DNA from: Desulfobacterales bacterium
Lineage (GTDB): Bacteria; Desulfobacterota; Desulfobacteria; Desulfobacterales; JAUCGF01
Direction: 5' to 3'
DNA length: 8,138 nucleotides
Assembly: GCA_029940345.1 (NCBI GenBank)
Contig: JAOZRC010000219.1
Span: 1 to 8,138, forward strand
In this document: positions 1 to 7,952 of the stretch, piece by piece
Layout: each line of letters starts with the position of its first letter
Position numbering within the stretch: position 1 is the stretch's first letter
The notes under the pieces: model-generated
The model's input: the letters and a program-made list of their open reading frames with translations, nothing else
What the model was told of the DNA's origin: nothing
Databases searched by the model: none
Position numbers and translations under genes: made by a program

Positions 1-9
1 AAATGTAGT

Positions 10-83
10 CGTAGGTTGGGTTGAGGAACGAAACCCAACGAATTCAGGCTGATGTTGGGTTTCGTTCCTCAACCCAACCTACG
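10..83. repeat. REP-like paired inverted repeat
   Basis: Positions 10-39 and 54-83 are perfect reverse complements (30-base arms) around a 14-base spacer. Each arm is itself a small hairpin (GTTGGGTT..AACCCAAC), so this is two inverted REP units side by side. The sequence type resembles the widespread REP palindromes mobilised by REP-associated tyrosine transposases (RAYT, TnpA-REP); no transposase lies in the window. The unit sits about 90 bases beyond the 3' end of the leftward phosphatase gene, where it could also end transcription. The spacer (40-48) and 108-116 share a further 9-base complementarity. Confidence 0.85.
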
Positions 84-175
84 TCTGTGCCGCCTTATGT
101 GGGTAGCCCTGAATTCCGAAGAAATAAAGATGTATGCAGAAAAAGGGGATGAAAATCTTTTCCAGCTCAAGCCCT

Positions 176-2615: not shown

Positions 2616-2812
2616 GGTAATAGTTCACCGCAAAGTCGCAGAGGACGCAAAGACAATAATTATTTTTTTTATGAGAGAAAATATAGTACGAATTGTAATC
2701 AGATTAGAATAATAATCCGCCAGAATCAGCTTTTTCAGCTTTCCGGCCTCTCTGCGGAAAGCTGAAAAGATAACCCTTTGCGCTCTTTGCGTCTTTGCGG
2801 TGAACTATTACC
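2616..2812. repeat. MITE-like element with 37-base terminal inverted repeats
   Basis: The left arm 2616-2652 and the reverse complement of 2776-2812 match at 33 of 37 positions; both begin GGTAATAGTTCACCGCAAAG and then repeat CGCAAAG-type units. The interior is 123 bases, AT-rich, and carries its own perfect hairpin. No transposase gene is inside. Short A-runs flank both ends but are too simple to count as a target duplication. CACCGCAAAG/CGCAAAG intergenic repeats are, from memory, common in Desulfobacterota and related genomes; no copy number can be given from one window. Confidence 0.7.
2732..2768. repeat. Perfect 14-bp hairpin inside the repeat element
   Basis: TTTTCAGCTTTCCG at 2732-2745 is perfectly complementary to 2755-2768 with a 9-base loop. 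The stem base is A/T-rich on both strands, so it could end transcription bidirectionally between the leftward azlD and the next gene. A separate downstream T-tract is lacking, so the terminator role is only possible. Confidence 0.6.
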
Positions 2813-4025: not shown

Positions 4026-4033
4026 GGGAGGAG
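4026..4033 (+). promoter_or_regulatory. Strong Shine-Dalgarno deciding the start at 4039
   Basis: GGGAGGAG ends five bases before the ATG at 4039-4041. This fixes the start of the rhodanese-DsbD fusion at the residue that opens with MKNIKPF, rather than at an in-frame ATG at 3943 that has no such site. Confidence 0.85.
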
Positions 4034-4038
4034 TTGTT

Positions 4039-5766
4039 ATGAAAAACATCAAACCGTTTATCATCATCATTGTGACTGCTGCAATTACGCTTGGCAGCCT
4101 ATGGTTCACTAGTAGGACAATCCCCCCCAGAGATGCGACCTGGGATGATATTGTTGCCGAATCTGAAAAAGGCGGCTACCAGCTCATACGCACGGATGAA
4201 CTATGGGAGCGCTATCGCCAGAATTCGGAAAGTATATTGATTGTGGATACACGTCAGGAATGGGAATATCGCACCGGACATATCAAAGGGGCGCTAAATT
4301 TTCCCATGGAACCCACCTGGCTGTCCCGATGGCGGAAAAAAGGGGCGCTTGAGACCTTGTTGGGAGTAGACAAGAGTCGTTTCATCGTTTTCTACTGAGC
4401 AGGCTTGACATGAGTCCGCAGTGACTCCGCCGCCCGTGTGGCTGTAAAGCTTGGCTATCAGAAAGTTTATCGTGAACCCATAGGGTATCCGCAATGGCAC
4501 GCCCAAGGTTTACCGGTCGAGACAGCGCCGGCGGGGCTTTCCGGCATGGTGACGGAATCTGAACCACCAGGACCGCTGCATGGCTGGAAAATGATCTGGA
4601 CATTGTTAGGCATCTTATTCGGAGGCATGGCTCTGAACCTGACCCCGTGTGTCTACCCCTTGATTCCCATCACTGTGTCCTATTTTGGCGGGCGCAGCGG
4701 CAAGGGCCAATTGGTCGGCCACGGATTATGTTACATCGGTGGCCTGGCGCTCACCAACTCTCTTCTGGGTGTGGCGGCCGCCATGACCGGCGGTTTGATG
4801 GGAGCAATGCTTCAAAATCCTATCGTGCTTGCCACGGTCGCCGCCATTTTGGTTATTTTCGCCACCAGTCTTTTCGGATTCTGGGAATTAAGACTGCCTG
4901 GCGGTCTCATGCAAGCGGCCTCAAAATCCTATACCGGCTATTTAGGAACGTTATTCATGGGATTGACTCTTGGAGTGGTGGCGGCTCCCTGTATCGGTCC
5001 CTTTGTTTTGGGATTGCTGACCTGGGTGGCCAGCATGGGGAGTCCTTTGCTGGGGTTTGTCATCTTTTTCACCCTGAGTCTTGGCCTCGGTTTGCCTCTT
5101 TTCTTTTTGGCCATCTTTTCAGGGCGCATCAATGCACTTCCTCGCTCCGGTGAATGGATGGTGTGGGTCAGAAAACTGATGGGTTGGATCCTGGTGGGTA
5201 TGGCCGCGTATTTCATAAGACCGATTATTCCCAAAACGGCAGGAATCTTTTTTTTAGCAGCCGTGGCTTTGGCAGCAGGGCTTCATTTGGGATGGTTTGA
5301 TCGAACCAAGGCCAGCTTTCGGGCATTTGAGTGGTTCCGAACCGCTGTTCTTATCGCAAGCATTGTAATGGCGACGCTGCTTATCGGATCATGGGGTCTG
5401 CAGGGGCCGGGAGTGAATTGGCGATCTTATTCCGATGCACTTTTATCAGAAGCGCAAAGATTAAAAAAGCCGATGATAATTGATTTTTCTGCTAACTGGT
5501 GCAGTCCCTGCCGCGAACTTGATGAGATCACCTTGCATGACGCGGAAATTGTCAAACAGGCCGGGCAGGACTTCATCATGGTCAAAGTCGACCTCACGCG
5601 CAAGGGAATTCCGGTTCATGAACAATTGCTTACAAAATATGAAGTCAAGGGAGTTCCCACAATTGTCTTTTTAGATCATCAGGGCCATGAACGACGCAAT
5701 CTTCGCGTGGTGGATTTCATGCCGGCGGATCAATTTCTGATCCGCATGGCGGAAGCTAGGAAATAG
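4039..5766 (+). CDS. Double-selenocysteine rhodanese-DsbD-thioredoxin fusion protein
   Basis: Read through two in-frame UGAs as selenocysteine, this is one 575-residue protein. Residues about 7-24 are a membrane anchor. Residues about 45-160 are a rhodanese domain with VDTRQEWEY (Asp70, Arg72), GHIKGALNFP and the loop YUAGLTUVRS, where Sec120 is the expected nucleophile and Sec125 the sixth loop position. Residues about 185-455 are a DsbD/CcdA membrane domain with the two conserved cysteines TPCVYP (Cys204) and APCIGP (Cys318). Residues about 465-575 are a thioredoxin domain with WCSPC (Cys488, Cys491) and cis-Pro540. In ordinary DsbD an alpha domain occupies the N-terminus; here a rhodanese replaces it. 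DsbD passes electrons from cytosolic thioredoxin across the inner membrane to periplasmic partners, so the Sec pair should be a periplasmic output (inference). Both halves share frame, and no Shine-Dalgarno precedes the GTG at 4438. It ends in TAG. The alternative is a gene broken by two nonsense changes. Confidence 0.85.
4396..4398 (+). other. UGA codon read as selenocysteine (Sec120)
   Basis: This in-frame TGA follows FIVFY, exactly where rhodanese proteins have the catalytic cysteine. The frame stays open and homologous beyond it (AGLT, then VRSDSAAR..LGY, matching the usual C.GxxC..S..A....LGY pattern). Confidence 0.85.
4411..4413 (+). other. UGA codon read as selenocysteine (Sec125)
   Basis: This is the second in-frame TGA, five codons after the first, at the position of the second cysteine of the CxGxxC active-site loop seen in many periplasmic-type rhodanese proteins. 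Two UGAs hitting exactly two cysteine positions is hard to explain by random decay. Confidence 0.83.
4412..4427 (+). promoter_or_regulatory. Candidate bacterial SECIS hairpin for the UGA at 4396
   Basis: GAGTC (4412-4416) pairs with GACTC (4423-4427) around the six-base loop CGCAGT. A lower GGC (4402-4404) to GCC (4429-4431) pairing across an internal loop is also possible. The apical loop starts 18 bases after the first UGA and has G among its first two bases, as bacterial SelB-binding hairpins usually do. The second UGA lies at its base. The folding was done by eye. Confidence 0.5.
4432..4442 (+). promoter_or_regulatory. Weak candidate SECIS hairpin for the UGA at 4411
   Basis: GCC (4432-4434) pairs with GGC (4440-4442) around the loop CGTGT, about 21 bases after the second UGA, with G at loop position 2. 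Only three firm base pairs are seen, with one more pair and a wobble below a mismatch, so the stem is weak and an alternative fold is likely. Confidence 0.3.
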
Positions 5767-5818: not shown

Positions 5819-6136
5819 ATGCTGAAAGTCAGATTTTTTTATAATGAGCCCAATGGAAAACCTTGAAAGCATTTCAAGAAGATGTTGCCCGGGCTGGGTG
5901 ACAAGTATGACATCCTAATCGAAACCATGTCCAAACCTAAGGCGGAATATAACACCGACGAATACTTCGAGCTGGATCTGCCGGTCGCTCCCGCCGTGAT
6001 GGTAGGCGAAGAAATCGTTGTTGAAGGGTCCGATGTTGCGGACGAAAAGCTTGAAAGCGTCATCTGTAAACACCTCGGACTGTCACCGCCTGAGCCGCGG
6101 AAAAAAGGGATATTCGGTCGTATTTTTAAAAAATGA
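5819..6136 (+). CDS. Small thioredoxin-like selenoprotein (Sec16)
   Basis: A 105-residue protein when the UGA at codon 16 is read as selenocysteine. The N-terminus is a beta strand (KVRFFYNE) followed by PNGKPU, so a GKPU motif stands where thioredoxin and glutaredoxin relatives have CxxC. LPVAPAVMVGEEIVVEG at about residues 54-70 looks like the thioredoxin-fold cis-proline strand (Pro58) and following hairpin. Cys83 is the only cysteine; there is no second redox residue beside Sec16, so a partner may resolve the bond. The C-terminus is basic (PRKKGIFGRIFKK) and may touch the membrane. No signal peptide is visible, so it is probably cytoplasmic. It lies 52 bases after the rhodanese-DsbD fusion and is likely cotranscribed, possibly as its electron partner (inference). 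It ends in TGA; I do not recognise a named family. Confidence 0.8.
5864..5866 (+). other. UGA codon read as selenocysteine (Sec16)
   Basis: This in-frame TGA is followed by 90 further sense codons in the same frame that complete a thioredoxin-like fold. It stands at the end of the first strand and loop, the usual redox-active position of this fold. Confidence 0.8.
5881..5914 (+). promoter_or_regulatory. Candidate bacterial SECIS hairpin for the UGA at 5864
   Basis: CCC (5888-5890) pairs with GGG (5896-5898) around the loop GGGCT. TTG (5885-5887) pairs with CAA (5902-5904) across a three-base bulge, and GATG (5881-5884) with CATC (5911-5914) further down. The loop begins 24 bases after the UGA and opens with G, within the usual spacing for bacterial SECIS elements. 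Folded by eye. Confidence 0.5.
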
Positions 6137-6155: not shown

Positions 6156-7952
6156 ATGCAAACCAAACCCACGCCTTGGGTCATCAAACCCCTTGTTCCC
6201 GAACCGGTTTACACGGATCGAACCGAATTTTTAGAATATTTTCATCATTCCGCGCTGGAAGGGGCGCATCGCCGCACCATGTCCAAGGTGCTTTTAGGCC
6301 AGCGCCGCATGGGTAAAACGGAAATTTTCAAACGGGTGGTGAACCGGCTTTTTTTTGAACAAAATCCCCGTGATCCGCATGCGGTTGTGCCGGTTTACTA
6401 CTGTTTCCGGGATCAGCCATCCGGTGAAACAAGCTTTGCAACGGACTATATGGAAAATTTCATCCGGTATTATGTCGGCTTTTTAACCTCACAACCGGAA
6501 CTTATTATTGATGAACCCCGGGGTGATAAACTGCTTGCGCTGGTTGAAAAAGCCAGGGCCCTTTATCCGTTCACCCGCACGCTTAATTTAATACTTGACT
6601 GGTATGATTCCGTTGTAATTGAAGACACGGTTTATCCGCAACGCGATGCGTTGTGGCTGCCGCGCCGGGTTTCTGACATTGATGACAGCACGATTGCCAT
6701 GTTTCTGGATGAATTTCAGAACACGCGTCTGCCCCAGTACGCTTTTGAAATCGTCGGCTTTATGCAGGAAGCCGTGGAATCACCCACCTGCCCCCATTTT
6801 GTCACTGGGTCAGCCATGAGCATTTTGTCCCGGGAGATTATTGGTCGGGGATCGCTGTTCGGAAGATTTCGCGGCAAAGATATCAAAGCGCTGTCCGGCT
6901 ATTGGGGTGCGGCCTTGGCTCGTAGAGCCGCCCGCTATTATAAGGCGGATATTACCGAATTGATGGCGCCCGTCATCGCAAACCGTTGTGGCGGCAATCC
7001 GTTTTATATCACCGCAGTGATTCAGCAGGCCGCTGAGTTAAATCAATCAATCAATAGCGAGGAAAGTCTGAATCGCATTTTGGCAGTGGATATCTCCTCC
7101 GGATTTATCTGGGGCGAGCTTAACGATCAGGTGGCGCGTTGGATTGAAAGGATCAATGAACACGGCATCACCAAACAAATTCTTTATCTCTCGGCGTTGG
7201 ATGAAAATACGGAGATGGAAAACAAGGGACGCTTGAATGTTGAGCGCATCCGCCGCGAACTCAAAAGGCGCGAAGGCCGGGATGTTGCACCGGAGGCTGT
7301 CAAGGAAGTGCTGATCAAGCTTTCGCGCGGCGATCTGGTGGAATATCTGGAATTGGGCGGATGGTTTCGCCGTATCAAAGACCCGATTCTCCTGGAGTTT
7401 CTTAAGGTCTGGGGACGGATTGAGGTGGATGGGCATCAGGCGAATCAGGTTCAAAATGAGTTGGTAGAAAAGTATATGGCTTTTGAACGGCGCGTCAAAG
7501 AATATAAAGGGTATCTGGCGGAAGTGCATATCACCCAGGTTTTATTGAATGGTCAGCGCAAAGTTTTGCCCGGCGCTTATTTTAACAGTTCCGAAGATAT
7601 TCAGATGCCGGATATGTTTTTCTTTGTACGGCAACGGTATCGTTTCGGTTCTGGTAAGGGACGCGAAATCGACGTAATCGGCGCGGCCGGACCGGAACAG
7701 TGGGTGTGCCAGAGCAAATGGATTGAAGGGAAAAAAATCGGTGTCGGGGTGCTTAAAGCGTTACAGGCGCAAGCCGATCAGGTCAAAGAGGATATGGAAC
7801 GACCGATCATCCGTAAATGGCTGTTTGCCAACCACGGTTTAACCGCCCAAGCACGAATTTATGCCCAAAAACATGGAATCTTATGGTCAGCGCGTGCAGA
7901 GTTCGATAAACTGCTTCAATACCTTGGTCTGAGACCGTTGCCGAATCTATGA
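6156..7952 (+). CDS. STAND-like (archaeal-type) ATPase with C-terminal PD-(D/E)XK nuclease domain
   Basis: A 598-residue protein. Walker A is GQRRMGKT (48-55), Walker B is AMFLDE (181-186), a sensor-like VTGSAMSIL follows at 216-224, and GGNPFYI (279-285) is the motif typical of archaeal/STAND (MNS-clade) P-loop ATPases. Residues about 335-405 look like a winged helix. The C-terminal 150 residues contain EIDVI (504-508, Asp506) and CQSKW (518-522, Gln519, Lys521), the D...QxK core of restriction-endonuclease-fold domains, with Glu456 a possible first acid. This matches the archaeal ATPase plus DUF234-like arrangement. Its role is unknown; defence, DNA repair or mobile-element upkeep are possibilities. 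The ATG at 6156 is chosen because AAGGAG lies eight bases upstream; the frame is open further upstream but overlaps the selenoprotein gene. It starts 19 bases after that gene, so it may be cotranscribed, though the functional link is doubtful. It ends in TGA. Confidence 0.85.
   Translation: MQTKPTPWVIKPLVPEPVYTDRTEFLEYFHHSALEGAHRRTMSKVLLGQRRMGKTEIFKRVVNRLFFEQNPRDPHAVVPVYYCFRDQPSGETSFATDYMENFIRYYVGFLTSQPELIIDEPRGDKLLALVEKARALYPFTRTLNLILDWYDSVVIEDTVYPQRDALWLPRRVSDIDDSTIAMFLDEFQNTRLPQYAFEIVGFMQEAVESPTCPHFVTGSAMSILSREIIGRGSLFGRFRGKDIKALSGYWGAALARRAARYYKADITELMAPVIANRCGGNPFYITAVIQQAAELNQSINSEESLNRILAVDISSGFIWGELNDQVARWIERINEHGITKQILYLSALDENTEMENKGRLNVERIRRELKRREGRDVAPEAVKEVLIKLSRGDLVEYLELGGWFRRIKDPILLEFLKVWGRIEVDGHQANQVQNELVEKYMAFERRVKEYKGYLAEVHITQVLLNGQRKVLPGAYFNSSEDIQMPDMFFFVRQRYRFGSGKGREIDVIGAAGPEQWVCQSKWIEGKKIGVGVLKALQAQADQVKEDMERPIIRKWLFANHGLTAQARIYAQKHGILWSARAEFDKLLQYLGLRPLPNL

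What the first reader, a model, noticed from the sequence alone, without database searches (positions are those of the whole stretch)
4039..5766. Rhodanese-DsbD-thioredoxin fusion with two selenocysteines in a UxGxxU active-site loop
Seen: one frame from a strong Shine-Dalgarno/ATG to a TAG, interrupted only by TGA at 4396 and 4411, which hit precisely the two cysteine positions of the rhodanese CxGxxC loop. Homology is continuous on both sides (rhodanese end, then DsbD TPCVYP and APCIGP, then WCSPC). Known: DsbD normally carries a periplasmic alpha domain with a cysteine pair; rhodanese-like selenoproteins have been reported in selenoproteome surveys. Inference: the Sec pair replaces the alpha-domain cysteines as the periplasmic output of a DsbD-type relay. 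A double-Sec rhodanese fused to DsbD is, as far as I know, not a described architecture.
Basis: partly seen in the sequence, partly recalled or inferred. Interest (0 to 1): 0.93.

Follow-up and report, generated by a model that had tools for sequence, protein, structure and literature searches.

The report
Double-selenocysteine rhodanese-DsbD membrane protein (TsoB)
This bacterial gene belongs to an already named family of membrane proteins (TsoB) whose two conserved UGA codons are predicted to be read as selenocysteine, and the protein likely passes electrons from inside the cell to a selenium-based active site outside the membrane.

Summary
One frame (4039-5766) is interrupted only by TGA at 4396 and 4411. 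Read through, it is a rhodanese / DsbD-membrane / thioredoxin protein with UAGLTU as the rhodanese loop. Of 93 related loci readable at both positions, 92 have TGA/TGA and one Cys/Cys. The genome has tRNA-Sec, selA, selB and selD. Two RNA hairpins after the UGAs are kept far beyond what codon usage gives. The next gene (5819-6136) is also a UGA gene.

The novelty claim fails. NCBIfam NF045694 (TsoB, "rhodanese/DsbD fusion-like selenoprotein") matches at 1003 bits (cut-off 805), the next gene matches TsoC, and a 2026 review lists TsoB with UxxxxU, crediting Haft & Tolstoy 2025.

Not seen described in my searches: the two hairpins, one of which contains UGA2; Sec-to-Cys change at both sites together; and a clade, including this window, without adjacent TsoA, where an ArsR-rhodanese gene often lies directly upstream.

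Likely mechanism: electrons from the cytoplasm pass through the membrane Cys pair and WCSPC to the Sec pair, which would reduce an outside disulfide or sulfane-sulfur compound. The relay is inferred from DsbD; the substrate is unknown.

The parts
4026..4033 (+). Shine-Dalgarno-like GGGAGGAG, 5 nt before the ATG
   Evidence: read from the sequence
4039..5766 (+). tsoB coding frame with two in-frame TGA, 575 residues
   Evidence: NF045694 TsoB 1003.3 bits, cut-off 805
4048..4113 (+). predicted N-terminal membrane anchor (residues 4-25)
   Evidence: hydropathy and helix 4-25 in the model
4198..4503 (+). rhodanese domain (residues 54-155)
   Evidence: Pfam PF00581, 51.8 bits, cut-off 22.2
4396..4398 (+). 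UGA1, predicted Sec120, at the rhodanese catalytic Cys position
   Evidence: TGA in 92 of 93 loci, TGC in one
4411..4413 (+). UGA2, predicted Sec125, sixth residue of the loop
   Evidence: TGA in 92 of 93 loci, TGT in one
4412..4427 (+). hairpin 1 (GAGUC, 6-nt loop, GACUC); its first two bases are those of UGA2; loop 18 nt after UGA1
   Evidence: 76 of 86 loci perfect, null mean 22.9, max 36; 38 of 45 non-redundant, null max 21; weak alone, -5.3 kcal/mol in the window
4429..4445 (+). hairpin 2; loop 21 nt after UGA2; the window has a C.U mismatch in the consensus register and can also pair 4429-4442
   Evidence: 82 of 86 loci perfect, null mean 11.8, max 24; 42 of 45, null max 13; changes on both sides of pairs
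4597..5229 (+). DsbD-type membrane domain (residues 187-397)
   Evidence: Pfam PF02683, 135 bits, cut-off 27.1
4648..4650 (+). membrane Cys204 (TPCVYP)
   Evidence: Cys in 95 of 95 loci
4990..4992 (+). membrane Cys318 (APCIGP)
   Evidence: Cys in 94 of 94 loci where mapped, one missing
5419..5676 (+). thioredoxin domain like DsbD gamma (residues 461-546)
   Evidence: Pfam PF13899; best model matches are DsbD gamma structures
5500..5511 (+). redox pair Cys488-SP-Cys491
   Evidence: Cys488 in 92 of 93 (the other is a disrupted record, L121) and Cys491 in 93 of 93
5819..6136 (+). tsoC, 105 residues with one in-frame TGA at 5864-5866 (predicted Sec16) and a TGA stop
   Evidence: NF045708 TsoC 148.8 bits, cut-off 45
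5884..5902 (+). hairpin after the tsoC UGA, -9.8 kcal/mol
   Evidence: the stem is perfect in 65 of 74 distinct tsoC stretches, null mean 4.8, max 11 of 150

Best explanation
The gene is tsoB, a member of a known family whose two in-frame UGA codons are predicted to be decoded as selenocysteine, and its product likely works as a DsbD-type electron exporter with a rhodanese domain carrying the selenocysteine pair as its outer tip. Shown: the frame, the conserved UGA pair, the domains, the conserved Cys pairs, the Sec machinery genes, and two conserved hairpins after the UGAs. Inferred: (1) SelB reads the UGAs with the help of these hairpins. (2) An N-terminal anchor puts the rhodanese outside, and eight further membrane segments put the C-terminal thioredoxin domain outside too. 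(3) Cytoplasmic thioredoxin would reduce the membrane pair Cys204/Cys318, which would reduce Cys488/Cys491, which would reduce a Sec120-Sec125 diselenide. (4) Sec120 would attack an outside disulfide or sulfane-sulfur compound and Sec125 would resolve the intermediate. I favour sulfane sulfur or persulfide as substrate, because the loop is that of a rhodanese and an ArsR-rhodanese gene often lies directly upstream in the window's clade; that choice is a guess of about 0.35. TsoC, predicted thioredoxin-like and without an evident signal sequence, may be a cytoplasmic partner.
For: NCBIfam TsoB and TsoC over their cut-offs. TGA/TGA in 92 of 93 loci, Cys/Cys in one locus and in proteins P0024 and P0077. 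tRNA-Sec, selA, selB, selD. Hairpins beyond a codon-usage null with changes on both sides of two pairs of hairpin 2. Rhodanese, DsbD_TM and thioredoxin domains. Cys204 in 95 of 95, Cys318 in 94 of 94, Cys491 in 93 of 93. An ordinary DsbD with its alpha domain is in the same genome, so TsoB is not the housekeeping copy. ArsR-rhodanese fusion directly upstream of TsoB in 16 of 88 loci, none of them with TsoA in the stretch held.
Against: No experiment. Direction of electron flow and topology rest on analogy and on a crude hydropathy plot; the whole-chain model is weak (pTM 0.46). The Cys locus L117 still forms both hairpins, hairpin 1 with two G-U pairs, so the stems are not tied strictly to Sec. 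The window has no regulator next to tsoB and its genome has no ArsR-rhodanese match. The regulator named TsoR is called a metalloregulator, which fits a metal or metalloid substrate as well.
Confidence: 0.68

Rival explanations
1. TsoB serves metal or metalloid handling: the Sec pair would bind or reduce a soft metal, arsenic or selenium compound outside the membrane.
For: An ArsR-type gene lies next to TsoA in 32 of 45 TsoA loci; the one tested, L062, is NCBIfam 'ArsR/SmtB-type metalloregulator TsoR' (165 vs 115). A C_GCAxxG_C_C redox protein and a methyltransferase occur near some loci.
Against: No metal-binding motif was tested; the short ArsR rows printed show no Cys kept in all of them (by eye). 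The methyltransferase tested reaches no NCBIfam cut-off. The rhodanese loop points to sulfur.
Confidence: 0.25
2. TsoB is a general disulfide reductase like DsbD, with the rhodanese fold used only as a scaffold for a low-potential Sec pair.
For: The DsbD_TM and gamma parts are those of DsbD; a Sec pair with four residues between resembles a redox pair more than a sulfur carrier.
Against: The same genome has an ordinary DsbD; the rhodanese fold and loop are kept in the relatives; the link to TsoC is close (14 of 15 TsoB genomes).
Confidence: 0.3
3. A single recoding hairpin (hairpin 2) serves both UGAs, and hairpin 1 is kept for another reason.
For: The loop of hairpin 2 lies 21 nt after UGA2 and 36 nt after UGA1, both inside the 16-37 nt given in PMC13188914 (passages). 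Hairpin 2 meets the energy limit in 82 of 86 loci, hairpin 1 in 3 of 86.
Against: Hairpin 1 is also far above its null (38 of 45, null max 21) and has the loop G (86 of 86) and the spacing expected for UGA1.
Confidence: 0.35
4. The TGAs are sequencing errors or the gene is broken.
For: Within the window alone the frame is interrupted twice.
Against: The same two TGAs in 92 of 93 loci from many assemblies; constraint on both sides; Sec machinery in the genome.
Confidence: 0.01

Closest known systems
TsoB, NCBIfam NF045694 (Tso operon; Haft & Tolstoy 2025, cited in PMC13188914)
   Same: Rhodanese / DsbD-like / thioredoxin fusion, UxxxxU, two Sec; score above cut-off; TsoC next door.
   Different: No adjacent TsoA or TsoR, and no TsoA match in the genome.
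DsbD (protein-disulfide reductase)
   Same: Membrane domain with a Cys pair and a C-terminal thioredoxin (gamma) domain.
   Different: Rhodanese with Sec instead of the alpha domain; 234.8 bits against a cut-off of 330 for NF001419.
Rhodanese-like selenoproteins forms 1-4 (UxxS, UxxG, CxU, UxxG)
   Same: Sec in a rhodanese domain (PMC13188914, passages).
   Different: Listed with one Sec each; TsoB is listed separately as form 5. TsoB scores 35.2 against 115 for NF041203.
ArsR-rhodanese fusion proteins upstream of some tsoB genes
   Same: A rhodanese loop of the same C-x4-C spacing (CRGPYC in 16 of 16).
   Different: A regulator with HTH_5 and rhodanese domains, with Cys instead of Sec and no DsbD part; not TsoR (46.9 vs 115).

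Membership tests
TsoB (NF045694) | Curated model score above cut-off over the full length | tested here: met
   1003.3 bits, cut-off 805, residues 8-573
TsoB (NF045694) | UxxxxU in the rhodanese loop | tested here: met
   U120 and U125; same TGA pair in 92 of 93 loci
Tso operon | TsoC gene adjacent | tested here: met
   5819-6136, 148.8 bits, cut-off 45
Tso operon | TsoA gene in the operon | tested here: not met
   No match in the genome, 93% complete; upstream lies an AzlC gene on the other strand
DsbD | Membrane domain and gamma domain with their Cys pairs | tested here: met
DsbD | N-terminal alpha domain (DsbD_N) | tested here: not met
   No PF11412 match at E 0.001; the genome's ordinary DsbD has it
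DsbD | NCBIfam NF001419 cut-off | tested here: not met
   234.8 vs 330
Bacterial selenoprotein | Sec machinery in the genome | tested here: met
Bacterial selenoprotein | SECIS-like hairpin at the right distance | tested here: inconclusive
   Two conserved hairpins with fitting loop and spacing; hairpin 1 is weaker than the published energy limit in 83 of 86 loci
Bacterial selenoprotein | Selenium found in the protein | not testable with these tools
   Needs 75Se labelling or mass spectrometry

The most novel reading that the evidence does not exclude
TsoB is a transmembrane diselenide reductase for sulfane sulfur: it exports cytoplasmic electrons to a two-selenium rhodanese loop that turns over persulfides or polysulfides outside the membrane. 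Its mRNA uses two tandem recoding hairpins, the first built partly from the second UGA itself, so that reading one Sec codon melts its own signal before the next is read. In a branch without adjacent TsoA the system is rewired to a persulfide-sensing ArsR-rhodanese regulator.
Probability: 0.2. Interest if true: 0.7.

Novelty: new member of a known kind. Interest (0 to 1): 0.4.

Why it matters
The family has a name, but in the passages I could read no function is given. The data make a clear question testable: does a diselenide pair replace the alpha-domain cysteines of a DsbD-type relay, and for which substrate? Two UGAs 15 nt apart, one of them inside a conserved hairpin, also offer a compact natural case for how a bacterial ribosome reads two Sec codons in close succession.

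Tried and rejected
Sequencing error or pseudogene: rejected on conservation. Single-sequence folding of the window was uninformative: z from 1.06 to -0.93 over five stretches, the tsoC one included. A shuffle that only swapped codons between loci had no power, because the codons hardly vary; I then drew synonymous codons from each gene's own usage. For tsoC the null used the usage of the tsoB gene of the same locus, or of all loci pooled. RNAalifold returned hairpin 2 only. Rfam gave only weak, irrelevant matches below the gathering scores and ARAGORN no tRNA in the window. L125 seemed to lack the rhodanese; that stretch reads as N. The single 'U488' (L121) lies behind a stop in a disrupted stretch and was set aside. 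The first regular expression for TsoA was wrong and was corrected. A TsoC alignment with a wrong reference (A2) was not used. In one search only the best 120 of 6585 protein matches were listed, so the count of Cys forms there (P0024 and P0077, the two full-length rows) is a lower bound. One search kept 80 of 99 confirmed stretches. Tree labels were typed by hand, and the tree is the quick version. Papers: Haft & Tolstoy 2025 is not held, so what it says beyond the review's passages is unknown to me. Of PMC13188914 I saw passages, and passages only of PMC9312934, PMC8318568 and PMC12013277. Searches for tandem or double bacterial SECIS and for an ArsR-rhodanese fusion were seen as listings and abstract starts; none of the listed titles or abstract starts names these points. 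No paper of the library holds all of rhodanese, DsbD, polysulfide, periplasmic and fusion. The SqrR/BigR listing was not read further.

Full report
What is there. The frame 4039-5766 reads through two TGAs, at 4396 and 4411, to a TAG, giving 575 residues with U at 120 and 125. Pfam finds rhodanese (54-155), the DsbD membrane domain (187-397) and a thioredoxin domain (461-546). NCBIfam names it: NF045694, rhodanese/DsbD fusion-like selenoprotein TsoB, 1003.3 bits against a cut-off of 805. The next gene, 5819-6136, has a UGA at residue 16 and is TsoC (148.8 bits, cut-off 45). A 2026 review lists TsoA, TsoB (UxxxxU, 2 Sec) and TsoC, describes Tso as a three selenoprotein operon, and cites Haft & Tolstoy 2025 (PMC13188914, passages). 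The original paper is not held. The finding is therefore real and already described at family level.

Is it selenocysteine? The genome has tRNA-Sec, selA, selB and selD, the last with an in-frame TGA of its own. I did not test the machinery in the relatives. A collection scan gave 80 loci and a search of 58 genomes 15 more. Of these 95, 93 could be read at both positions: 92 TGA/TGA and one TGC/TGT, L117. L122 starts inside the gene and L125 reads as N there. Two full-length protein records, P0024 and P0077, are also Cys/Cys. No mixed Sec/Cys case was seen among these. In an 85-row quick tree L117 is sister to the Sec row L118 (SH-aLRT 100), so this Cys pair looks derived. Both sides of the TGAs show protein constraint. 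G054 also has a second, partial TsoB-like stretch without stops, which I did not follow.

The hairpins. From the 93 loci came 88 distinct stretches, 86 of them Sec. Hairpin 1 (GAGUC, six-nt loop, GACUC) begins with the last two bases of UGA2, and its loop starts 18 nt after UGA1. Hairpin 2 (commonest form GCGGCC-CGGGU-GGCCGU) has its loop 21 nt after UGA2. Against synonymous codons drawn from each gene's own usage, hairpin 1 is perfect in 76 of 86 (null mean 22.9, max 36 of 200) and the five-pair core of hairpin 2 in 82 of 86 (null mean 11.8, max 24 of 200). In 45 loci under 80% identical the counts are 38 (null max 21 of 1000) and 42 (null max 13 of 1000 for the six-pair stem, 16 for the core); the best stem anywhere in 100 null sets reached 27. 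Hairpin 2 changes on both sides at two pairs (GC 54, AT 23, GT 4; CG 77, TA 9). Other overlapping stems also exceed the null, so a larger fold is possible. Against a plain reading: the published limits include -7.5 kcal/mol (PMC13188914, passages). Hairpin 1 alone meets that in 3 of 86 and hairpin 2 in 82 of 86; the window gives -5.3 and -7.2, with a C.U mismatch in the consensus register of hairpin 2. The loop of hairpin 2 is also 36 nt from UGA1, so one hairpin could serve both. The Cys locus L117 still forms both stems, hairpin 1 with two G-U pairs. tsoC has a conserved hairpin of its own: 65 of 74 distinct stretches, null mean 4.8, max 11 of 150.

The neighbourhood. Of 58 genomes, 15 have TsoB. 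TsoC is in 14 of these 15 and in none of the other 43. TsoA is in 8 of the 15 and in none of the 43, and not in the window's genome. In 90 loci (L022 and L059 being the same stretch), TsoA lies near TsoB in 45; 25 have at least 2.5 kb upstream and no TsoA; 20 are too short to tell, the window's short locus among them. A short ArsR gene lies next to TsoA in 32 of the 45; the one tested, L062, is NCBIfam TsoR (165 vs 115). In 16 of 88 loci an ArsR-rhodanese fusion with the loop CRGPYC lies directly upstream of TsoB, and none of these 16 has TsoA in the stretch held. The fusion tested is not TsoR (46.9 vs 115). In the 58 genomes the fusion is in 5 of the 15 with TsoB and 1 of the 43 without; the window's genome has none at E 1e-25. 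G038 has the fusion next to TsoB and a TsoA on another contig. The window's TsoB falls in a clade of 17 rows (SH-aLRT 96) in which none carries the label of an adjacent TsoA.

How it probably works. DsbD passes electrons from cytoplasmic thioredoxin to a membrane Cys pair, then to its gamma and alpha domains outside (recalled). TsoB keeps the membrane pair (Cys204 in 95 of 95, Cys318 in 94 of 94) and the WCxxC pair, gives no alpha-domain match, and has a rhodanese with a Sec pair in that place. The best matches of the TsoB model are DsbD gamma structures, followed by rhodaneses, but the whole-chain confidence is low (pTM 0.46), so the model does not show how the domains meet. The same genome has an ordinary DsbD with the alpha domain, so TsoB is likely specialised. 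The loop has six residues, as in sulfur-handling rhodaneses (recalled). A second Sec at its end suits a Se-Se bond that the gamma domain would reduce. I read TsoB as an exporter of electrons to an outside disulfide or sulfane-sulfur substrate. The relay is inferred and the substrate is open; the metalloregulator label of TsoR favours a metal or metalloid rival.

TsoC. The model (mean pLDDT 73.6) has a thioredoxin-like order of elements. Its best PDB matches are mostly thioredoxins, none below E 0.001 and with TM-scores near 0.5-0.6, so the fold is a lead. Sec16 is near the start of the first helix.

Verdict. Added here are the hairpin pattern, the joint Sec-to-Cys change, and the variant without adjacent TsoA but often with another regulator.

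Noticed in passing
window 7-86: A near-perfect 33-nt inverted repeat (97%) at the contig start; it explains weak plant and animal microRNA matches in the Rfam scan.
   Followed up: partly
window 2616-2812: A 37-nt inverted repeat flanking about 120 nt, with partial copies elsewhere: 30 matches in the genome, the window's own included. It looks like a dispersed repeat element.
   Followed up: partly
window 6156-7952: A 598-residue ATPase-like protein with only a sub-threshold AAA_14 match (24.9 vs 27) and no NCBIfam match. It lies on the same strand behind tsoC, but no relative of it was found in the other TsoB loci searched.
   Followed up: partly
L052:2599-3267 and 15 other loci: ArsR-rhodanese fusion genes directly upstream of tsoB, with Cys in HTH and linker regions and CRGPYC in the rhodanese loop. 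They resemble a persulfide sensor (recalled, SqrR/BigR type) but reach neither the BigR nor the TsoR cut-off.
   Followed up: partly
L067, L077, L080, L109, L114, L126, L128 and others: Two tsoC-like genes in a row behind tsoB; the first copy in L109 has Cys at the Sec position.
   Followed up: no
L101:5105-5641: A GcvH-related protein (NF045810, 256.8 vs 150) beside tsoB; the same cluster occurs in 10 of 88 loci. GcvH-like lipoate carriers are known in sulfur oxidation (recalled), so this may bear on the substrate.
   Followed up: no
L098:5161-5886 and cluster: A VTT-domain (TVP38/DedA-type) membrane protein gene near tsoB in 21 of 88 loci, function in this context unknown.
   Followed up: no
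L159:192-2069: The genome's ordinary DsbD has a C-x4-C pair (CTATSC) in its alpha domain, the same spacing as UxxxxU in TsoB.
   Followed up: no
genome G001, same genus as the window's: Neither TsoB nor TsoC was found in the one other genome of the genus searched, which suggests gain or loss within the genus.
   Followed up: no
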